Positions 55,008 through 64,000 of a stretch of DNA of 64,000 nt are shown here, piece after piece (the stretch's first letter is position 1; every line of letters starts with the position of its first letter). The notes under the pieces were generated by a model that ran no database searches, had not been told where the DNA came from, and was given only the letters and a program-made list of their open reading frames with translations. Position numbers and translations under genes: made by a program. The stretch is from assembly GCF_900177245.1 (NCBI RefSeq), contig NZ_FXBM01000003.1, positions 186,001 to 250,000 on the forward strand, given 5' to 3'. The stretch is from Rathayibacter oskolensis (GTDB taxonomy: Bacteria; Actinomycetota; Actinomycetes; Actinomycetales; Microbacteriaceae).

Positions 55008-55762
55008 AGCCGGTCGTCCCAGAATCCGTCGGAGGAGCGCCCGGCCGGACCGGACGACGAGCGGGGGGCCCGCGCGGGTGCGGAGCCCTGGACGACGCGG
55101 AAGACGATCCGCGTGCGGCCGATCGAGATGGTCTGCTCGGGGGAGAGGGGAGCCTGGGTGACGGGCTTGCCGTCGAGCTTGGAGCCGTTGGTCGAGCCGA
55201 GGTCGTGCACCTGGGCGCGGGTGCCGTCCCAGAGGATCTCGACGTGCTTGCGGGAGGTGCCGGAGTCGTCGATGGTGATGTCGGCGTCGCTGCCCCGGCC
55301 GATGACCGTGCGGGCCTTCGTGAGGGGGTAGCGCTTGCCGTCGATGTCGAGCACCGGCGAGTAGGCGACCGTGCCCTTGACGCTCCGGGAGTCGACCTCG
55401 ACCATCCCGTCGCTCAGCGACTCGTCCGCGGCCAGGGAGATCTCGATGGGGCCGGAGAAGCGGTAGCCCTGCTTCTTGGCGTGCTCGGTCGCCACCGTGG
55501 TCAGCTCGTCGATGAGCGTCGAGCCGAGCCGCTCCATGCGGTCGAGGTCGGCGGCGGACATGCGCAGTGCGAGGCGGTTGGGGACCAGGATGCGGTCGCG
55601 GCTGACGACCGCGGCGGTGGTGTCGAGCTCCCTGCGGAGCGCCGACGCGAGCTCGACCGGCTGCAGCCCCGACTTGAAGGTCCTGGCGAACGCGCCGTTG
55701 ACGACGCGCTCGAGTCCCTTCTCGAAGTTGTCCAGTATGCCCACGGTCTTCTTCCGGTTCAT
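55004..55762 (-). CDS. fhaA: FHA-domain protein FhaA with DUF3662 domain
   Basis: 252 residues. The N-terminal DUF3662 domain (VGILDNFEKGLERVVNGAFA, then RTFKSGLQPVELASALRREL) precedes a C-terminal FHA domain (TVIGRGSDADITIDDSGTSR, KHVEI, LGSTNGSKLDGKPV). It binds the phosphorylated pseudokinase of MviN in mycobacteria; the local MurJ lacks that domain, so its partner may differ. First gene of the leftward fhaA-fhaB-pstP-rodA-pbpA-pknA operon. GAGAGG ribosome site. Confidence 0.94.
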   Translation of the reverse strand: MNRKKTVGILDNFEKGLERVVNGAFARTFKSGLQPVELASALRRELDTTAAVVSRDRILVPNRLALRMSAADLDRMERLGSTLIDELTTVATEHAKKQGYRFSGPIEISLAADESLSDGMVEVDSRSVKGTVAYSPVLDIDGKRYPLTKARTVIGRGSDADITIDDSGTSRKHVEILWDGTRAQVHDLGSTNGSKLDGKPVTQAPLSPEQTISIGRTRIVFRVVQGSAPARAPRSSSGPAGRSSDGFWDDRL

Positions 55763-56063
55763 CGCCTCTCGGCGGCCACGCTCGGATCGGGGTGTCTGTG
55801 CGCCCCTCGCCGAGTCCGATCTGGTCTGCGCCGCGCACGGCTACGGGCATGTTACTGGGATGCTCTGGACGCGGGCTCCTCCGAGGGGTTTCGGAGTGCG
55901 GCGCGGGGTGCGGTGCACCGTCGCTGCCGCGGTGCACGCCGATGTGCGGAATCCGGCGTGCACGGCCGCATCGAGCGTGCACGGGGTGAGCGGAGAGGCC
56001 GGCGGTGCGGCTGCCGGGCGCGGGGTGCTAGTCTTTCTCGTCGGCGCTTCGGTGCCGTGGTGA

Positions 56064-56150
56064 GCGCGAGTGGCGGAATAGGCAGACGCGCACGGTTCAG
56101 GTCCGTGTGCCCGAAAGGGCGTGGGGGTTCAACTCCCCCCTCGCGCACCA
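56064..56150 (+). tRNA. tRNA-Leu (CAG)
   Basis: 87 nt with encoded CCA. Acceptor GCGCGAG/CTCGCGC, D arm TGGCGGAATAGGCAGACGC, anticodon loop with CAG, a long variable arm (TGCCCGAAAGGGCGT) as in class II tRNAs, and T arm GGGGGTTCAACTCCCCC. Decodes CUG, the most used Leu codon in high-G+C genomes. Right after fhaA, divergent from it, as in related genomes. Confidence 0.97.
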
Positions 56151-56159
56151 GCAGTGGAC

Positions 56160-56191
56160 AAGCCCCCAATCGGAGATCCGGTCGGGGGCTT
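56160..56191 (+). terminator. Terminator after tRNA-Leu
   Basis: AAGCCCCC (56160-56167) pairs with GGGGGCTT (56184-56191) around a 16-nt loop, 10 nt past the tRNA. Confidence 0.75.
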
Positions 56192-56260
56192 CGTCGTCTT
56201 CGCGTCGCGGACTGGACGGCCGACGAGCGCTCTGCCGTCCGGGCGCGGGCGCGAGCCGTC

Positions 56261-57004
56261 TCAGGAGTCGCCGCGCACGCTGCGGACGCGGGCGGTGCGC
56301 GGGTAGGCGGCCGGATCGCGGGGGCCCGCCTCCGGGAACTCGAAGAGGTCGATCATCAACTGCAGCGGGTAGGCCAGGGTCTGCTCGACCGTGTGCACGA
56401 GCGCGCCGTCGACGGAGAGGGCGACGCCCGCCTCCGACCACTCGGCGGCGTAGCGGTGCGGCTCGGCGGTGTCGATCGGCAGATCGAGGTCGACGATGTC
56501 GGTGCGGAGCCGCGGATCGTTGACCGCCTTCACTCCGAGGCGCACGGTCGAGCGGCGCTCGCCGCGGAGGGAGCCGAACAGCTCGGCGACGGTGATCTCG
56601 CCGGAGTCGTCCGGACCGGACTCCTCGACTCCGACCAGCCAGATCGCGAGCATGCACGCCGGGTGAGGGCTCGCCTCGAGCACCGCCTCGACCCGGCCGC
56701 TGCGGGGAGTCCACCACCGCCGGGTCGGCACCTCGGTGCGCACCCGCAGCCCGGGGAGGTGGCGGTGCGTGCCCCGATCGGAGCCGACCGGCCCGGAGAA
56801 GGAGCCGGTCTGCAGGTTCGAGACGCGCATCGGGCCGTCCTCGTCGCGCCAGGCCGGCTGGTCGGCGTCGATGCGCAGGAGCAGACCGTCGCCGTCGAGG
56901 TCGTAGCGGGCCCGGGAGCGCTCGGGAGTGGTCCACTGCGGCAGGTAGTGGTCGACCCAGCGCTCGGGATCCAGGCGCCCCTCGTCGAATCCGTCGGTGA
57001 ACAC
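56261..57004 (-). CDS. GH16-like family protein with altered catalytic motif
   Basis: 247 residues from GTG at 57004 (a GTG at 57061 would overlap the previous gene by 52 nt). The opening FTDGFDEGRLDPERWVDHYL and QWTTPE, GLLLRIDADQPAW, MLAIWLVGVEESG and the late HRYAAEWSEAGVALSVDGAL are typical of GH16/concanavalin-like enzymes. The active-site strand reads GEITVAELFG, whereas GH16 needs ExDxxE: the Asp is Thr. There is no signal peptide. It may be a non-catalytic sugar binder. Last gene of the unknown operon. Confidence 0.75.
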   Translation of the reverse strand: MFTDGFDEGRLDPERWVDHYLPQWTTPERSRARYDLDGDGLLLRIDADQPAWRDEDGPMRVSNLQTGSFSGPVGSDRGTHRHLPGLRVRTEVPTRRWWTPRSGRVEAVLEASPHPACMLAIWLVGVEESGPDDSGEITVAELFGSLRGERRSTVRLGVKAVNDPRLRTDIVDLDLPIDTAEPHRYAAEWSEAGVALSVDGALVHTVEQTLAYPLQLMIDLFEFPEAGPRDPAAYPRTARVRSVRGDS

Positions 57005-57009
57005 GGCCG

Positions 57010-58233
57010 TCAGCGCGGTGCGGTCGACGGACCGTCGAGGAGGAGGCAGGCGGTGGACCACGCCGAGAAGACAGCGGGGGGCCGATCGCCGAGATCGCTC
57101 GCGGCCAGAGCGCCGACCTCGGTGGTCAGCTGCAGGAGCAGGCAGGTCGTCACCAGCTGGCGGGAGCGGTCGCGACCCAGCAGGCCGGAGGTCAGGAGGG
57201 CGCGTTCCTCGTCACCGCTCGCGCGCGGCAGCCAGACGTCGACGGCGGTCGTCAGCCACGGGTCGCCGAGGGGGGAGCTGAGGTCTCCGGTGGCCAGCGC
57301 ATCCCAGTCCACCCTGTCGAGGGCGGCCAGGCGCTCCTCGATGCGCCGGCCGCGGGTCGTCGCGTCCCGCGCCTCCTGGCGGGTGCGCTCGCGCTCGCGG
57401 CGCCGCTCGGCGGCCCGTGCCAGCACGCGTTCGAGGCGCTCGTCCGTCGCATCGACCACCACCCGCCGATGGCGGCGGATGTCGAGGAGGATCTGCGGCA
57501 GCGTGATCGCGCGCTCCGGCGGGACGCGGGTGATCTCCGCCCCCACTCCGAACCGCTCCACCAGATCGGCGGCGAACGACGGCAGCACCACCCACACCTC
57601 CCGCGGCCGCGCGGCCAGCTCGGCGTCGATCAGTCGCAGGCCCCTGCGGTCGCCGCACGCGACGGCGAAGGACGGCACCGACGCGGAGCGGGCGCGGAAT
57701 CCGGCGACCATGGCCAGCTCGCCCTCGTCCGGCCCCTCGGACACGTTCTCGTGGAACACCTTCGTGGTGCCCGACCACAGCAGCAGCACCGCTCCTTCGG
57801 CAGGGGGGACGGTCGACACCGACATCTCGGGGGCCGGCGCGCGCGCGAAGCTCGTCCGCCGGTCCGCCTCCTCCGACGCGAGACCCGCGTAGAGCGCCCG
57901 GACCGCCTGGTCGGCGGGCTTGCCGTAGCTGCGGACCGCCCCGACGGGCAGCTCGGTCGTCAGAGCCGTCCAGTCGATCAGATCCGCCAGCAGGCGAGCC
58001 AGCCGAGCGCTCGCGCCGCGCACGTGATCGGCCTCGTCGAGGTCGTAGAACTGGGACTGCACCGAGCTGATGTCGGCCCTGGTGCGGGCGAGCCTCCGCG
58101 CGAGCTTCTGCCTCTCCTCCGTCACCTCCGGCTCGGCGCCCTCCTCCTGCTCCGGATCCTCCGCCGGAGGAGTCGCGCGGAAGCCGCGGAAGATGTTCTC
58201 GGTGTCGAGGAGGAGCTCGGAGAGGCCCGTCAT
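57010..58233 (-). CDS. Unknown protein of the 57-64 kb operon (407 residues)
   Basis: 407 residues, ATG overlapping the preceding gene's stop (ATGA). I do not recognise it. An acidic N-terminal part (residues 20-40 rich in Glu/Pro) leads into a basic helix. A central part has alternating strands and helices (GAVLLLWSGTTKVFHENV, VACGDRRGLRLIDAELAA, REVWVVLPSFAADLVERFG) reminiscent of a Rossmann-like fold without a nucleotide motif. A strongly charged coiled-coil stretch (ERVLARAAERRRERERTRQE) lies around residues 265-300. No membrane segment. Confidence 0.78.
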   Translation of the reverse strand: MTGLSELLLDTENIFRGFRATPPAEDPEQEEGAEPEVTEERQKLARRLARTRADISSVQSQFYDLDEADHVRGASARLARLLADLIDWTALTTELPVGAVRSYGKPADQAVRALYAGLASEEADRRTSFARAPAPEMSVSTVPPAEGAVLLLWSGTTKVFHENVSEGPDEGELAMVAGFRARSASVPSFAVACGDRRGLRLIDAELAARPREVWVVLPSFAADLVERFGVGAEITRVPPERAITLPQILLDIRRHRRVVVDATDERLERVLARAAERRRERERTRQEARDATTRGRRIEERLAALDRVDWDALATGDLSSPLGDPWLTTAVDVWLPRASGDEERALLTSGLLGRDRSRQLVTTCLLLQLTTEVGALAASDLGDRPPAVFSAWSTACLLLDGPSTAPR

Positions 58234-59507
58234 CGCTCGTCGCCGAGGTCGAGGCCCGCAGCCCGGAGCTCGGCGAGGAAGGGGTCGGCCCAGGCGCCCT
58301 CGGGCACGGTTCCCCGCGAGACCGCGCGACGCGCCTGGTCCACCCGCGCGTCGACGACGGCGGCGATCGCGGCCCGGTCGGCACTGCGCTCGGCCTCGCT
58401 GCGGGGCGTGAATCCGTCGGCCCCGACCGCGTCGCTGTAGACCGTGACCAGCACCTCCGACAGCCGAGCCGTCGCGTCGAGGTCGGTCTCGCCGTCGTAC
58501 CCGCCCGCCACCGCGGTCAGCGCGACGCCCGCCACCAGACCGTCGCCGTAGTCCACGCGCGCGAACAGGCCGCCCAGCGGGAGGCGCCGCTCGACCGCTC
58601 CCGCGTCGGCATCGACCATGACCCGGAACTGCCGCCGGCCGTCGAACTCGAAGATCTGCCAGCGCACGGCGTCGTCCTCCGCCGAGACGACCCGGGGCGG
58701 CACCGCCAGCGGATCCACCGACGCCGAGCCGCTGAGATCTGCACCGCCCGCAGACCCGAAGCGGTCGGCGGAGGAGCCGGAGGAGGCCCGCATCGCGCGC
58801 TCGTCCACCGGGATCGTGAGCAGCTCGAGGTCGAGATCGTCGAGCTCGCGCGCCACCAGCTCGTCCTCGCGACCGGCGCGGGCTTCGGCCTCGGCCAGCT
58901 CGGCGTAGCCGTCGGAGTCGGGGTCGCCGCTCTCGAGGAGTGCGTGCGCCGCCCGCTGCAGGATCGAGTCGGCGTAGACGAGCAGCGGCCTGCCGCCCAG
59001 CAGCGACTGGTGCCGGAGGCGCAGCGCCCCCAGCGGCGCCACCTGGGGCTCGAGCAGGAGACGGGCGAGCGCGTCGTCGTCACCCAGTGCCACCTCGCAG
59101 TCGAACGCCACATCGCCGGCCTCGACGTCGAGCAGCCAGGCGGGCAGCTTCGGGATGGTGTCGGTGCGGGTGGGCCACCAGCGGCGCAGCCACAGAGCGA
59201 GACCGAGGCGGAGCAGGGTCGCGCGCAGCGGGTGAGCCGCCTCCTCCGGGGATCGGGTGATCGGTTCGGAGCCGGCCGTCGCCGCGGATTCGGCCACTTC
59301 GGCGCCGAGAACGAGCGGGAGCCACCACATCGCCGCGTCGAGGTCGTGGATCACGGCGCGCAGGTCGGGTTCGGGCTCGTCGACCGCGAAGGCGACGTGC
59401 CCGCCGCTCAGGGCGACGAGCGTGTGGCGGCGCTCGAGCGAGGCGGGGAAGCCGACGGGGGCGACGACCACCAGGTCGCCGTCACGGCTGATGAGCAGTT
59501 CTGTCAT
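58230..59507 (-). CDS. Unknown protein of the 57-64 kb operon (425 residues)
   Basis: 425 residues from ATG at 59507, itself overlapping the upstream stop (ATGA). No family recognised. It begins with a compact beta-rich segment (MTELLISRDGDLVVVAPVGF, then ALSGGHVAFAVDEPEPDL), followed by a Trp-rich helix region (AMWWLPLVLGAEV, LALWLRRWWPTRT). The middle is acidic and Asp/Glu-rich (DPDSDGYAELAEAEARAGRE). A last segment (WQIFEFDGRRQFRVMVDADA) is again beta-like. No signal peptide or membrane helix. A cytoplasmic partner of the two flanking proteins is the simplest guess. Confidence 0.78.
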   Translation of the reverse strand: MTELLISRDGDLVVVAPVGFPASLERRHTLVALSGGHVAFAVDEPEPDLRAVIHDLDAAMWWLPLVLGAEVAESAATAGSEPITRSPEEAAHPLRATLLRLGLALWLRRWWPTRTDTIPKLPAWLLDVEAGDVAFDCEVALGDDDALARLLLEPQVAPLGALRLRHQSLLGGRPLLVYADSILQRAAHALLESGDPDSDGYAELAEAEARAGREDELVARELDDLDLELLTIPVDERAMRASSGSSADRFGSAGGADLSGSASVDPLAVPPRVVSAEDDAVRWQIFEFDGRRQFRVMVDADAGAVERRLPLGGLFARVDYGDGLVAGVALTAVAGGYDGETDLDATARLSEVLVTVYSDAVGADGFTPRSEAERSADRAAIAAVVDARVDQARRAVSRGTVPEGAWADPFLAELRAAGLDLGDER

Positions 59508-61345
59508 GATCCGATCCCGATTCCTGGGGGTGTGTCGCGGCCCATCGCCGTGCGTATCTGCAGTGCTGCCAGCTCGAAGGGCACGGTCGGGAACCCCGCC
59601 CGCTCCGCCTCGAGCGACCACGCCGCCCACCGCTCCGCTGCGCCGGCTCGCGCCGCCGCGTCGGGCGTCGGCGCCCCCACCACCAGCACGAACCGGTCGA
59701 CCTCGTCGTCGCCGACCGTCTCGCGGGCGACACCGAGGGTCTCGGCCGTCGCCGAGACGATCGGCAGGTCGGGACGAGGGCCGGCGGGGAGCCGTGCCGG
59801 GTCGTCCGCCGTCGCCGTCGACGGGTAGCCGTCACCGCCCGGGCCCGAGCCGTCCGGTGGGCCGCCCGGGGCGCCTCCGGTGACGCCCACCAGGTTCACG
59901 GCCTGCTTGAGAACGTCGTCGGTGCGCTTCTTCGTCGAGACGAAGGCGGCGTGGATGCGGGACCACGCGACCTCGCCGGTCGGCGGAGTGGACGAGGTCA
60001 GGCCGAGCCGCAGCACGTGGGTCCACAGGCGGCCCGCGTAGTAGGGCCCGGCATCGCGGAGGTAGGCGCGCACGATCGGGTTGCGCACCTGATCGCCGTA
60101 GGTGCTGAACGCCCGCGACACCACCGCGCGCCACGACACCACCATCTGCCGATAGCCGCCGACGAGCCGATCAGCGGGGTCCGCCGCCTCCGAGGCCGTC
60201 ACCAGCGTCCCGCCGCCGTCGTCCCAGGTGGCGCCCGACATCGCGGACATGCCCGTGGCGAGCATCGCGCGGGACCACGACTCCGGAAGGCCGTAGACGC
60301 GCGTCGACGCCCCGATCACCCTGCGGAAGGCGTCCTCGGCCGTGAGCTCGGGCGGGAACCTCGCGTCGTTGTCCTTGACGACGCGGAAGAGCCGGGAGTG
60401 GATGCTCGCGTCGAGCGGGTACGCGGGCGTGGCGCGCAGGTCGTCGCCCGCCCTGCCCGCGACTCCCGGAAGCGCTCCGGTGAGCGCCGGCCGGACCGGC
60501 GCGGATCCGCCGGTCAGCGACAGGCTCGCGGCCGGGGACCACTGCCGGGAATCGGCCGCCGCGACGAGAGCCCGCCAACGCTGCTCGCCCGCGTCCGACA
60601 CCACCGTGACCACGCGGTCGGTTCCGTCCTCGACGGCGAGGGTGCACTGGTTCACGAACCTCTCCAGCGCGGCTCGCCACCCCGCGTCGTCGCGTGCGCG
60701 CGCATCCCTCTCGGCGGAGGTCGCCTCGCGGACTGCGCCGCCCTCCTCCACCCACCCCGCGGGGAGGCCGTCGACGGATCCGCCGGCCCACGCCTCCTCG
60801 AGGAGCATCGTCAGCTCCTGGGCGTGATCCCTCACGGCGCGAGCGAGGTCGGTGCTCCGGATGCCGTGCCGCGCCAGCGCCCGACCTCTGATCGACAGCG
60901 CCTCCGACGCCCGCCGGGCCAGAGCCGCGGGCTCCAGCGTCCAGGGCTCGGGAAGCTCCTCGGCCAGCGCGACAGCAGTCGGAGCGGTGACGGCGGCCGC
61001 ATCGTCGCGGATCACGCGCTCGAGCCTGTTGGCCTCGATCAGGGCCGCCCACCAGACCGCCGCCGCCCGGAGGGAGGCGCGCCCCTCGACCAGGAGCGCA
61101 CGCACCTGCTCGGCGGCGTCGTCCGACAGCACGGTCCTCGGCGAGCTGAGCGCGGTCTTGCTCAGCACACCCGCGAGCACCGGCGGCAGCAGGTACTCCC
61201 GAGCGCTCTTCGTCGGCTGCCCCAGGGACCCGGTGAACGCGCGCAGCTGCAGCACCTCGGGCGCCGAATGGGGCCAGACCTCGGCAAGGACGGACGTGAG
61301 CAGCACAGCGGTGATCCCGACGAAGTAGTGGTCGACTGGTGTCAA
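59504..61345 (-). CDS. Unknown large protein of the 57-64 kb operon (about 613 residues)
   Basis: About 613 residues; start uncertain. No ATG or GTG precedes the sequence-like region, so TTG at 61345 (56 nt after the upstream stop) or GTG at 61306 are candidates. I do not recognise it. It is mostly helical, Ala/Glu/Arg-rich, with a Trp-rich middle (VVSWRAVVSRAFSTYGDQ, WTHVLRLGL) and a Gly/Pro-rich hinge near residues 505-530 (GGAPGGPPDGSGPGG). A short hydrophobic stretch near the start is not a clear signal. It overlaps the next gene by 4 nt. Confidence 0.7.
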   Translation of the reverse strand: MTPVDHYFVGITAVLLTSVLAEVWPHSAPEVLQLRAFTGSLGQPTKSAREYLLPPVLAGVLSKTALSSPRTVLSDDAAEQVRALLVEGRASLRAAAVWWAALIEANRLERVIRDDAAAVTAPTAVALAEELPEPWTLEPAALARRASEALSIRGRALARHGIRSTDLARAVRDHAQELTMLLEEAWAGGSVDGLPAGWVEEGGAVREATSAERDARARDDAGWRAALERFVNQCTLAVEDGTDRVVTVVSDAGEQRWRALVAAADSRQWSPAASLSLTGGSAPVRPALTGALPGVAGRAGDDLRATPAYPLDASIHSRLFRVVKDNDARFPPELTAEDAFRRVIGASTRVYGLPESWSRAMLATGMSAMSGATWDDGGGTLVTASEAADPADRLVGGYRQMVVSWRAVVSRAFSTYGDQVRNPIVRAYLRDAGPYYAGRLWTHVLRLGLTSSTPPTGEVAWSRIHAAFVSTKKRTDDVLKQAVNLVGVTGGAPGGPPDGSGPGGDGYPSTATADDPARLPAGPRPDLPIVSATAETLGVARETVGDDEVDRFVLVVGAPTPDAAARAGAAERWAAWSLEAERAGFPTVPFELAALQIRTAMGRDTPPGIGIGS

Positions 61346-61401
61346 TCTAGCGGCACACCCCGTCGCCCGCGTGGTCCCCGTCGAGACCCGCTGCGCTCCC
61401 G

Positions 61402-62610
61402 TCACGGGCAGGTGCCGGAGGCGACACCCCGCGAGACGACGACCGTCCGGTTCTGCGCCGCGGCCTGCTCGATCAGCCGACCCTCGGCGTCGCGGTCGGA
61501 GACGCGGCACGGCCACGAGGATCCGTAGCCCACGATGCGCACGGCCGACACGTCGATTCCGAGGGCCGCGGCGAGGGGCAGGGCCGCTGCGAGGCCGCGC
61601 TCCTCCGAGAGGGGCACGTTGACGGTGTCGTCGCCGACGGAGCTCGTCGACGCCTCGACCAGCACCTCGCCCTCGCAGCCGGCGAGGGCCTGCGCGATCT
61701 CGGCGATGGTCGCCAGCGCCGACGCCTCGTCGACGAACTCGGCCGAGTCGCTCCGGTAGCCGATGGCGGCGTCGGGGAGGACGCGGCGGCAGTCCCCGGC
61801 CACCACCACCGGCGGGCGCGAGACGTCGATCGGAGTGACGGCGGGCAGATCGGCGGTCGGCTGGGGCTGAGCGACCAGCGAGTCGCTGCTCCAGTCGACC
61901 TCGGCGCCCGACGCCTCGAAGAACGCCTGCCACTGCGACTGCAGCGCCGCGCGCGCCGTGCTGGTCAGCTCGCCCTGCGGACTCACCACCACTCCCAGTC
62001 TCGGAGCCGACACCGTCACGCCCTCGAGGTCGGGCACTCCGCCGGCCTCCTCGAGGGCGGCGATCCTGTCGGCGGGCTCGCTGAACAGGGCGCCGTCCAG
62101 CATGGCGAGGCTCCCCGCGGTCTGCAGCATGCTGTCGAGGATCACCATCGTCCGCGACCGCGCGTCGGAGGAGAAGGGCGTGGACCCGAGCGCGATCGCC
62201 TCCGTGAGGTCGGCCTCCGCCGACTCCGGGTGAGCCGCGATCGTCGCCGCCGCTGCCGTGTTCTTCACCTGGTCGAGCCGGTCGGAGCGGGAGCGGCCGT
62301 TCGCGGGCAGCTCGTCGAGGGTCAGATCGAAGAGCACGCGGGGCGACCCCTCGACGCCGATGACGACCAGCCGGTCGCCGACCGCGTCGATCCGGTCGAG
62401 CGCCTCGAGGACCATGCCGGTCGAGACGGCCGGCGAGTTCGCGCGGGTGCCGGCGATGATCACGACCTCGTCGCCGCCCGTGCTCTCGACCGGGACGCAG
62501 CCCGCGAGCACGGACGCTCCCAGTGCTGCGGCGGCGAGCAGTGCCAGGCGGGCGCGGGCACGGCGGGCGCGGGCACGGCGGCTCGCGCGAGTGGGGGTGG
62601 TGGCGATCAT
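61402..62610 (-). CDS. Lipoprotein with von Willebrand-like part and OmpA-like domain
   Basis: 402 residues from ATG at 62610 (GAAGAAGG upstream). A basic N-terminus, hydrophobic stretch and lipobox VLAGC (Cys at about residue 36) mark a lipoprotein. A middle part looks like a von Willebrand A-type fold without the metal motif (EVVIIAGTRANSPAVSTG and TMVILDSMLQTAGSLAMLDG). The last 100 residues resemble an OmpA peptidoglycan-binding domain: LSEERGLAAALPLAAALGID, VRIVGYGSSWPC, and QNRTVVVS where OmpA has NRRVE. OmpA-like domains are rare on Gram-positive lipoproteins. Confidence 0.82.
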   Translation of the reverse strand: MIATTPTRASRRARARRARARLALLAAAALGASVLAGCVPVESTGGDEVVIIAGTRANSPAVSTGMVLEALDRIDAVGDRLVVIGVEGSPRVLFDLTLDELPANGRSRSDRLDQVKNTAAAATIAAHPESAEADLTEAIALGSTPFSSDARSRTMVILDSMLQTAGSLAMLDGALFSEPADRIAALEEAGGVPDLEGVTVSAPRLGVVVSPQGELTSTARAALQSQWQAFFEASGAEVDWSSDSLVAQPQPTADLPAVTPIDVSRPPVVVAGDCRRVLPDAAIGYRSDSAEFVDEASALATIAEIAQALAGCEGEVLVEASTSSVGDDTVNVPLSEERGLAAALPLAAALGIDVSAVRIVGYGSSWPCRVSDRDAEGRLIEQAAAQNRTVVVSRGVASGTCP

Positions 62611-62696
62611 GGTGGTGTCCTTCTTCCTGTGAGGGGGGCTGAGGGGCGGTCGGGTCGCCGCCCCCTCAGCGCGAGTACCGGTCCCGATCGGGAGGG

Positions 62697-62879
62697 TCAC
62701 ATCCAGCGCTTCGCGTGCTGCGGGCACACGAGGCCGGTGCCGCAGTCGCAGCGGCGGCCGCGCCAGCCGCCGAGGCACGACGGGCACAGCTGCAGGGGCG
62801 ACGAGCACCAGGCGCAGGCGCCGTGGTCGCGCTCGTCGACTCGGGAGCGCACGAACATCCAGCGCAGCAGGCGGTTCAT
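62697..62879 (-). CDS. Small cysteine-rich (zinc-ribbon-like) protein
   Basis: 60 residues, ATG overlapping the membrane-protein stop (ATGA). It carries CAWC, CPSC, CDC and a final Cys-Pro-Gln-His, in the order CxxC...CxxC...CxC...CxxH, with Trp/Gly between them. This spacing can bind two zinc ions. No family is recognised. The basic start (NRLLRWMFVRSR) may touch nucleic acid or membrane. Tight coupling to the membrane-protein gene argues that it is real. Confidence 0.8.
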   Translation of the reverse strand: MNRLLRWMFVRSRVDERDHGACAWCSSPLQLCPSCLGGWRGRRCDCGTGLVCPQHAKRWM

Positions 62880-64000
62880 CGAGCCGCCGCCGCGTCGTCA
62901 TCGCCCTGGCCGCGTGCCGCCTCGGGGCTCGCCGCGGCGCCGGGGACCACGAGGTGCAGCGGCTCGGTGGCGCTCCCGGAGGCGGGCTCCCGCCTCCACG
63001 ACGTCGCCCAGTCCGGCAGGTCGAGCGAACCGAGGTCGTCCGATTCCCGCTCGGGGACCCACACCGCGGTGGGTGCCGGGCGGGTCTCCTCGACCCGCAC
63101 CTCCACCGCGCCCGTCATCTCGGGGGTCCCGTGCGCGAGGGCGAGCTCCTGGGAGTACTCGGCCTTGATCACGTCGGCCTGCGCGGCGAGCTTCGTCGGC
63201 TCGATCGCCCAGATGCCGTCGGTGATCCCGATGTCCGAGATCTGGTAGTCGATCTGCCGCTCCACGGCCCCCGCCCGCTCCTTCACGTCGGCGAGGTCGG
63301 TCTCGAGCACCTCCACCGCCACCCGGGCGTGCAGCTCGCGCTCGCGGGCCGGATTGTGGCGGAGGCTCATCACCAGCACGGTCATGCCCATCCCCAGGAG
63401 GAAGAACACCCACATCGCTGTCGTCAGGCCCTGGTACTCGACGATGAACGGCAGGCTGCCCTCGGCGACGCTGCCGCTGCCGGTGACGGCGAGCAGCTCC
63501 TGCTGGGCGCGGTCGTACTCGCTGAGCGCGTGCGCCGCCTCGGCGGCCCCGCGGAGGGTGCCCAGCAGCACGCCGGCGCTCAGCCAGGTCGCTCCTCCGA
63601 GCACCACCGTGAGAACCGAGCGGGTGGCGAGCGCCCGGCCGCGGCGCAGCAGCTCGGCAGCCGGAGGCGTCGCGGCCGCGGTGGACGCCTCATCGCGGGG
63701 CGCGGGACGCTTCGCGCGCCGGAGCGCAGCGAGGTCGGCGATCGCGCGGCCCACCTGATGGGGCAGAACGGTCAACGCGACGACGACGGCGCCGGCGAAC
63801 AGCACCGGGATCCACGGATTCTCGGGGCGCAGGATCTGGTCGAGCGAGTCGCTCGCCGCGGCGAACTCGATCGAGGCCACCCCCAGCACCACGGCGGCGT
63901 CGATGATCGCCAGCCGCAGCAGCACGCGGCGATGGTCGCTGGCCGTCGCGGCGATCGGGGATCCCGTCCTGATCGCTCCGTCATCGTCCTCGCGGGTGCC
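62876..64000 (-). CDS. Four-helix membrane protein with long cytoplasmic tail (runs off right edge)
   Basis: The frame stays open to the window edge, so the start is not seen; GTG at 63925 is one possible start but the preceding 25 codons read as ordinary protein. Four hydrophobic helices (LLRLAIIDAAVVLGVASIEF, WIPVLFAGAVVVALTVLP, SVLTVVLGGATWLSAGVLLG, MWVFFLLGMGMTVLVMSL) are followed by a 160-residue charged tail with a helical start (VAVEVLETDLADVKERAGAV). No family recognised. It leads the visible part of the operon and may anchor the complex. Confidence 0.78.
   Translation of the reverse strand, partial: GTREDDDGAIRTGSPIAATASDHRRVLLRLAIIDAAVVLGVASIEFAAASDSLDQILRPENPWIPVLFAGAVVVALTVLPHQVGRAIADLAALRRAKRPAPRDEASTAAATPPAAELLRRGRALATRSVLTVVLGGATWLSAGVLLGTLRGAAEAAHALSEYDRAQQELLAVTGSGSVAEGSLPFIVEYQGLTTAMWVFFLLGMGMTVLVMSLRHNPARERELHARVAVEVLETDLADVKERAGAVERQIDYQISDIGITDGIWAIEPTKLAAQADVIKAEYSQELALAHGTPEMTGAVEVRVEETRPAPTAVWVPERESDDLGSLDLPDWATSWRREPASGSATEPLHLVVPGAAASPEAARGQGDDDAAAAR

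What the first reader, a model, noticed from the sequence alone, without database searches (positions are those of the whole stretch)
57010..64000. Undescribed tightly coupled operon: membrane anchor, zinc-ribbon, OmpA-like lipoprotein and three unknown proteins
Six genes run leftward; three junctions are 4-nt stop/start overlaps (62879/62876, 59507/59504, 58233/58230), a sign of proteins made in fixed ratio. None of the three large proteins (about 613, 425 and 407 residues) shows a known motif, yet the set includes a four-helix membrane protein and a peptidoglycan-binding-type lipoprotein. This looks like an envelope-spanning machine with a cytoplasmic part. Overlaps and topology are seen; the machine idea is inference.
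Basis: partly seen in the sequence, partly recalled or inferred. Interest (0 to 1): 0.72.

Follow-up and report, generated by a model that had tools for sequence, protein, structure and literature searches.

The report
Variant of an undescribed caspase-like cassette
Two of the six genes belong to a pair that, in many actinobacteria, sits beside genes for a caspase-like protein-cutting enzyme and a helper repeat protein, so this operon is probably the envelope-linked arm of an uncharacterised bacterial protease signalling system.

Summary
In detail: six leftward genes are real, with four 4-nt overlaps, not three (the fourth is 61402-61405). The operon runs past the window edge. In the only close relative found (L001, Rathayibacter sp. 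Leaf185) it continues into a coiled-coil-like gene, opposite a divergent gene with a CHAT (caspase-like) domain.

Profile searches showed that the 633-aa (P4) and 425-aa (P5) proteins belong to two actinobacterial families without a trustworthy Pfam, NCBIfam or PADLOC model. In the 30 P4 loci outside the window, P5 is next door in 30. Within 8 kb there is a CHAT protein in 29 (the exception is a 5-kb contig), a TPR or TPR-like protein in 27 and a 19-kDa-antigen-type lipoprotein in 19. The CHAT His and Cys are conserved in 25 of 25 aligned. CATRA caspase/TPR systems are similar in kind but share neither P4 nor P5.

The window holds a variant with other envelope parts (4-TM protein, OmpA-like lipoprotein, zinc ribbon). 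It is an accessory insert beside tRNA-Leu, absent there in the 13 other genus genomes compared.

Best reading: envelope-gated caspase-like signalling. The cassette is well supported; trigger, substrate and outcome are inferred.

The parts
62876..64000 (-). Four-TM membrane protein (5' end beyond the window; 520 aa in L001)
   Evidence: 89% identity to L001; four hydrophobic segments; weak matches only: DUF7169 0.0012 below cut-off, ZorB1 PADLOC 8.2e-5 and NCBIfam 0.031 with 13.7 of 400 bits; 1 of 349 family genomes
62697..62879 (-). 60-aa Cys-rich (zinc-ribbon-like) protein; overlaps the membrane gene by 4 nt
   Evidence: dN/dS 0.15 and 97% identity to L001; no family match; the zinc-ribbon label is from the Cys spacing by eye
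61402..62610 (-). Lipoprotein: lipobox, N-terminal domain of unknown kind, C-terminal OmpA-like domain
   Evidence: AlphaFold model unusable (pLDDT 36.9)
59504..61405 (-). P4 family protein (633 aa), first of the conserved P4-P5 pair; GTG start overlaps the lipoprotein stop by 4 nt
   Evidence: (24 of 345 class genomes); in 11 members Pfam gave only DUF6417 (0.0045) and Helicase_C_3 (0.043), each in one member
58230..59507 (-). P5 family protein (425 aa) with conserved W...WWP residues; 4-nt overlap with P4
   Evidence: 6 of 398 family genomes; no Pfam match in 14 members; tree
57010..58233 (-). P6 protein (407 aa), found only in L001 and G337 (L041); NYN-like acidic motifs by eye only; 4-nt overlap with P5
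   Evidence: profile comparison with NYN negative; AlphaFold model unusable (pLDDT 43.7); 2 of 297 order genomes, 1 of 15 genus genomes
56261..57061 (-). GH16-like glycosidase: a resident of the site, NOT part of the system
   Evidence: PF00722 3.4e-5; related gene at the same site without the operon in L078, L084 and L085
56064..56150 (+). tRNA-Leu(CAG), conserved edge of the insertion site
   Evidence: in 13 of 13 other genus genomes compared

Best explanation
The operon is the Rathayibacter variant of an undescribed actinobacterial cassette whose core is P4 + P5 + a TPR protein + a CHAT caspase-like cysteine protease, often with a surface lipoprotein.

Proposed working: the lipoprotein and the four-TM protein register a disturbance at the envelope. 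The coiled-coil part and P4/P5 pass it on as adaptors or inhibitors. The TPR-CHAT protease, held inactive, is released and cuts a target protein, giving growth arrest, death or a regulatory switch. P6 (possibly a nuclease-like effector or a substrate) is an extra of this sub-branch.

Shown: the gene set, its conservation, and the CHAT dyad. Inferred: complex formation, direction of signalling, substrate and outcome. That the window's own genome carries the CHAT gene is also inferred, from L001, because the window ends first.
For: P4 family in 24 of 345 class genomes. The 30 P4 loci outside the window are those 24 plus three family loci (L005, L042, L048) and three of six plasmid records. Of 30, within 8 kb of P4: P5 30; CHAT 28 by my profile, plus L001 P0008 by Pfam = 29, the miss being the 5,080-bp contig L060; TPR profiles 27; lipoprotein profile 19; P6 2.

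CHAT domain by Pfam: P0018 8.1e-15, L036 1.9e-13, L041 6.5e-14, L045 2.3e-10, L098 7.7e-9, P0008 1.5e-11. His (VGH) and Cys (ACxS) conserved in 25 of 25 aligned (P0008 and the plasmid loci are not in that alignment). TPR by Pfam in L036 (weak), L045 and L041 and L099. In L099 the TPR and CHAT proteins are one 978-aa ORF by my profiles. Lipoprotein = PF05481, 1e-22 to 3.3e-29 in 4 of 4 tested. The P5 tree joins window, L001, L041 and L047 (98/94). L041 links both forms: cassette CHAT, P4, P5 and P6.

CHAT is rare in the genus: 9 of 15 Rathayibacter genomes have none and G001 has two, so one beside the operon is unlikely by chance. Precedent: TPR-CHAT Csx29 is an activated protease that cuts Csx30 (PMC10028731, abstract, introduction and section headings seen).
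Against: The CHAT gene lies outside the window, and in L001 it is on the other strand. P0008 is not a close relative of the cassette CHATs: own profile 8e-4 only with all filters off, hhalign probability 3.8%. Its Pfam CHAT match covers only the C-terminal part (profile 175-288) and its TPR signal is weak (0.02).

Of the 27 'TPR' loci, 25 rest on one profile (in L041 the TPR protein also bears a kinase domain) and two (L005, L042) on another whose members Pfam does not confirm as TPR. In L099 Pfam listed TPR but no CHAT at E<=0.01. L048 shows no TPR neighbour. The lipoprotein is lacking in 11 of 30 loci, L041 among them.

Two of the 30 loci (L042, L048) were found through P5. Many of the 30 are related genomes, not independent events. 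A lone P5-like gene occurs in G317 as two identical copies without P4 or CHAT. The tree program warns that the join of L041 with the Rathayibacter pair may be a long-branch artefact. No direct evidence exists for complex formation, protease activity or a trigger. Both structure predictions failed.
Confidence: 0.62

Rival explanations
1. Housekeeping envelope-stress or cell-wall proteolysis: the cassette is a vertically kept regulatory protease, not a death or defence system. (This and the next rival are outcomes within the cassette reading, so their odds overlap with it.)
For: In some genomes the cassette has recurring chromosomal neighbours: L045, L046 and L050 share flanking genes, and L035, L037, L038, L039 and L051 share a neighbour of about 1,085-1,100 aa (judged by length and start of the protein). 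A lipoprotein is often part of it. PADLOC has no match for the core proteins tested. A P4 relative was not found in 50,697 phage records.
Against: In Rathayibacter it is an accessory insert at a tRNA site that carries other cargo in other genomes (Schlafen/AlbA_2, DUF3800). It also sits on large plasmids. It is patchy: P4 in 24 of 345, P5 in 6 of 398 genomes.
Confidence: 0.3
2. Anti-phage or anti-competitor abortive system, analogous to CATRA or Craspase: sensing triggers CHAT and kills or arrests the cell.
For: CHAT+TPR composition as in the CATRA locus L110 and in type III-E Csx29; accessory island beside tRNA-Leu with defence-like alternatives at the site.
Against: No convincing PADLOC match. 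Recurring neighbours in some lineages look vertical. Envelope lipoproteins are unusual in such systems (recalled).
Confidence: 0.3
3. Envelope-spanning structural or transport machine with a cytoplasmic part, no proteolysis.
For: Four-TM protein, OmpA-like lipoprotein, four 4-nt overlaps.
Against: The membrane protein is not found with P4/P5 outside the Rathayibacter pair (1 of 349); the commonest partners are CHAT and TPR; no ATPase or channel family found in the window proteins.
Confidence: 0.07
4. Chance cluster of unrelated cargo genes in a hot spot.
For: The site holds different cargo in other genomes; a lone P5-like gene in G317.
Against: P4-P5 pair in 30 of 30 P4 loci, P6 again behind P5 in L041, purifying selection.
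Confidence: 0.04

Closest known systems
CATRA caspase/TPR conflict systems (Pfam CATRA-N PF20269, CATRA-C PF20270)
   Same: Actinobacterial operons with TPR and CHAT parts plus families of unknown function (L110)
   Different: No CATRA domain in the window proteins or in the P4 and P5 members scanned; CATRA-C in 0 of 10 genomes carrying P4 or P5 (where no control genome rang; the same model did ring in 11 of 226 class genomes); six CATRA loci hold none of P4, P5, cassette CHAT or cassette TPR at E<=0.01; profile comparison negative
Type III-E Craspase TPR-CHAT (Csx29) with Csx30
   Same: TPR plus CHAT protease; fused in L099 by my profiles
   Different: CRISPR context not searched for; partners here are P4/P5 and often a lipoprotein
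Mycobacterium 19-kDa lipoprotein antigen family (PF05481)
   Same: The small lipoprotein of the cassette belongs here in 4 of 4 tested
   Different: The window has an OmpA-like lipoprotein instead; in the search listings I saw no paper that puts PF05481 beside CHAT
Zorya (ZorA/ZorB)
   Same: Weak ZorB1-profile match over about 74 residues around one TM helix
   Different: Far below the NCBIfam cut-off (13.7 of 400 bits); no other Zorya protein matched among the window operon's proteins

Membership tests
CHAT cysteine peptidases | PF12770 domain in the cassette protease | tested here: met
   Above cut-off in P0008, P0018, L036, L041, L045, L098, six of the seven scanned; none at E<=0.01 for the fused L099 ORF
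CHAT cysteine peptidases | Catalytic His and Cys | tested here: met
   25 of 25 aligned cassette CHATs; P0008 has VMGVHGG and LASCNSQ
CHAT cysteine peptidases | CHAT gene in the window's own genome | not testable with these tools
   Window ends at 64000 inside the operon; no own genome held
CATRA systems | CATRA-N/CATRA-C domain protein | tested here: not met
   positive control L110
CATRA systems | TPR plus CHAT proteins in the operon | tested here: met
   In relatives; in L001 one divergent gene with weak TPR signal; not visible in the window itself
Craspase (type III-E CRISPR) | Cas7-11/gRAMP effector and CRISPR array next door | not tested
   No dedicated search was run
Zorya | ZorA and ZorB (MotA/MotB-like) pair | tested here: not met
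   Only a sub-threshold ZorB match
OmpA-like peptidoglycan binders | PF00691 domain | tested here: inconclusive
   7.7e-5 and 7.9e-6, 23.4 and 26.6 bits against a cut-off of 27.2; PDB OprF domain 2.6e-5
OmpA-like peptidoglycan binders | Binding Asp and Arg of the GHTD...LSxxRA motif (motif recalled) | tested here: inconclusive
   By eye: Arg kept (LSEERG), Asp position reads Ser (EASTS) in both copies
NYN nucleases (for P6) | NYN profile | tested here: not met
   No Pfam match; hhalign with three NYN proteins negative, aligning only the GD stretch; model unusable

The most novel reading that the evidence does not exclude
A bacterial transmembrane caspase pathway: an extracytoplasmic lipoprotein and a membrane relay gate a cytoplasmic TPR-CHAT protease through two new adaptor families, a functional parallel to animal death-receptor signalling, spread across actinobacteria (probably including mycobacteria and streptomycetes) and undescribed so far.
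Probability: 0.25. Interest if true: 0.88.

Novelty: new variant of a known kind. Interest (0 to 1): 0.62.

Why it matters
A caspase-like protease, a TPR partner, two families of unknown function and often a lipoprotein of the 19-kDa antigen family travel together in actinobacteria, including large plasmids of Streptomyces and Nocardia. That gives a concrete hypothesis for several unannotated genes at once and links surface lipoproteins to internal proteolysis. My searches of the held open-access library found no paper describing this set: ('CHAT domain' with 'mycobacteri') returned zero papers; I saw listings only, and nothing in them pointed to it. Most subscription papers are not held, so this is weak evidence of absence.

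Tried and rejected
Structure prediction of P6 (pLDDT 43.7) and of the lipoprotein (36.9), each with a two-row alignment, failed; no fold search was made with them. NYN nuclease for P6: suggested by DxEN and GD stretches, not supported by profile comparison, kept only as a weak lead. PDB profile searches for P4 and P5: nothing at E<=1; for P6 only chance-level matches; for CHAT P0018 only chance-level matches. CATRA membership: rejected. Zorya: rejected. GH16 gene as a seventh member: rejected. No P4 relative in phage records or, with the one pattern tried, in viral contigs. P4 of the window in plasmids: none; with two distant family members as queries, the same six plasmid records, of which three were fetched. 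The lone P5 neighbour in G317 is not a hidden P4. Rfam: nothing in 55700-64000. Promoter/terminator scan of 55900-57200 uninformative.

Rows and choices dropped: L061 left out of the P5 tree as an identical copy of L047; G308 not fetched for the site comparison, so 13 of the 14 other genus genomes were seen. P4 alignment A7 used 11 and P5 alignment A6 used 14 chosen members, not all hits. Genome tallies are lower bounds: large groups were sampled and only a few candidates per genome were scored.
Full report
Observation. The six leftward genes are present as described. The large gene is better started at GTG 61405 (633 aa), because the same GTGA overlap and a near-identical N-terminus occur in L001. 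Five of the six genes show purifying selection against L001 (dN/dS 0.15 to 0.48). The membrane gene is 89% identical at protein level over the visible part. 4-nt overlaps are not rare here: 9 of 48 codirectional junctions in a rough gene call. They suggest translational coupling but prove no fixed ratio.

Known families. Pfam, NCBIfam, PADLOC and PHROGs give nothing firm for the 60-aa, 633-aa, 425-aa and 407-aa proteins. The lipoprotein has an OmpA-like C-terminus, just below Pfam's cut-off and supported by PDB hits. The Asp normally used to bind peptidoglycan (motif recalled) appears replaced by Ser in both copies, so peptidoglycan binding is uncertain. The membrane protein has four hydrophobic segments and sub-threshold DUF7169 and ZorB-like stretches.

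Nearest relative. One scan of 84,980 species genomes with P4 as a single sequence found one locus, L001 in Rathayibacter sp. Leaf185. There the same order continues upstream into a 233-aa coiled-coil-like gene (label by eye). Divergently, a 998-aa protein carries a C-terminal CHAT domain (1.5e-11) and a weak TPR signal.

Wider family. A distant P4 hit in G021 (L005; E 6.8e-5, 31% identity) lies in a cluster with a TPR-like protein, a P5 relative, a lipoprotein and a CHAT protein. Profiles made from these (A1, A2) found P5 in 6 of 398 family genomes and P4 in 24 of 345 class genomes. I fetched the neighbourhoods of all 24, of three further family genomes (two found through P5) and of three of six plasmid records: 30 P4 loci outside the window. 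P5 is next door in 30. Within 8 kb, CHAT is present in 28 by profile, 29 counting P0008; the remaining one is a 5,080-bp contig. TPR profiles match in 27 (25 by one profile; two, L005 and L042, by another whose members Pfam does not confirm as TPR). A lipoprotein is present in 19 and P6 in 2. P4 and P5 overlap by exactly 4 nt in 18 of 30 by my start calls. The named holders are Nocardia farcinica NCTC11134 plasmid 2 and Streptomyces sp. NBC_01237, NBC_01591, NBC_00046, NBC_00012 and NBC_01590 plasmids. In NBC_01237 one 978-aa ORF matches both my TPR and my CHAT profiles, though Pfam listed only its TPR part at E<=0.01.

Catalysis and lipoprotein. The CHAT His (VGH) and Cys (ACxS) are invariant in 25 of 25 aligned cassette CHATs. 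The small lipoprotein is of the Mycobacterium 19-kDa antigen family in 4 of 4 tested, out of 19 loci with my lipoprotein profile.

The window's sub-branch. A P5 tree joins window, L001, L041 (G337) and the lone L047 at 98/94, with a warning that long branches meet here and the join may be false. L041 connects the forms: cassette CHAT, P4, P5, then P6, with a divergent kinase-TPR protein. The Rathayibacter form seems to have a different TPR-CHAT gene and a different envelope set: membrane protein, zinc ribbon, OmpA-like lipoprotein, coiled coil. That these stand in for the small lipoprotein is inference; 11 of 30 loci lack that lipoprotein by my profile.

Insertion site. The tRNA-Leu(CAG) and fhaA edge is present in all 13 other genus genomes that I fetched (of 14), and none has the operon there. 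P6 was found in 1 of 15 genus genomes. The GH16 gene beside the operon is a resident, since a related gene occurs there without the operon in three genomes. Two genomes carry instead a gene of about 590 aa at the site; the one tested is Schlafen/AlbA_2. Another carries a DUF3800 gene. The operon G+C is 74.4% against 70.1% for the window. So it is an accessory insert at a variable site.

Is CHAT beside the operon in L001 a coincidence? CHAT is rare in the genus: 9 of 15 genomes have none, G001 has two. P0008 is divergent, seen by Pfam but only marginally by the cassette profile and not by profile comparison. With the wider pattern, coincidence is unlikely but not excluded.

Relation to CATRA. 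CATRA systems are the nearest known kind; PMC8195603 (passages seen) calls them caspase-dependent ternary conflict systems. CATRA-C was found in 0 of 10 genomes carrying P4 or P5, a search in which no control genome rang. The same model rang in 11 of 226 class genomes, 10 over the cut-off. Six CATRA loci hold none of P4, P5, cassette CHAT or cassette TPR. One of them, L110, was confirmed with Pfam CATRA-N, CATRA-C and a TPR-CHAT protein. PMC8195603 credits two papers for CATRA: one (PMC7159879, find and outline seen) has no 'CATRA' or 'CHAT' in its held text, and the other, by the DOI I recalled, is not held. So I cannot say whether it mentions this cassette.

Mechanism. The best-supported inference is regulated proteolysis: TPR-CHAT is the enzyme, P4 and P5 are regular partners (adaptor, inhibitor or substrate), and the lipoprotein with the membrane protein supplies an envelope input. 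Csx29, a TPR-CHAT protease activated in a complex to cut an inhibitor protein (PMC10028731, abstract, introduction and headings seen), shows that such a switch exists in nature. What triggers this one, what it cuts, and whether the outcome is death, defence or stress control is unknown; I split the odds about evenly between defence and envelope-stress control.

Limits. The CHAT gene of the window's own genome is outside the window and no own genome is held. Many loci are related. Both structure predictions were unusable. P6's NYN-like look rests on motifs by eye and failed the profile test. Genome tallies are lower bounds, since groups were sampled and few candidates per genome were scored.

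Noticed in passing
window 56064-57061 and L083/L087/L084: The stretch beside tRNA-Leu(CAG)-fhaA is a variable site in the genus: Schlafen/AlbA_2 protein in L083 (a like-sized gene with a similar start in L087), DUF3800 in L084, GH16-like gene in three genomes, the operon in two.
   Followed up: partly
L041:4828-7392: A Ser/Thr kinase fused to TPR repeats sits divergent from the CHAT-P4-P5-P6 cluster in G337, a possible kinase input to the cassette.
   Followed up: no
L099:8646-11582: TPR and CHAT proteins of the cassette appear fused in one ORF on a Streptomyces plasmid (own profiles; Pfam shows only TPR at E<=0.01).
   Followed up: partly
L036:5557-6027, L005:11232-11795, L042:11058-11594, L040:10323-10865: Lipoproteins of the Mycobacterium 19-kDa antigen family (PF05481) stand in or beside the CHAT cassette.
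   Followed up: partly
L047:9815-10618 and L061 (G317): A lone 267-aa P5-like gene, two identical copies on two contigs, without P4, CHAT or TPR; the only P5 seen outside the pair.
   Followed up: partly
L001:2344-2802 (minus): A 152-aa protein without Pfam match lies just beyond the CHAT gene in L001 and may belong to the island.
   Followed up: no
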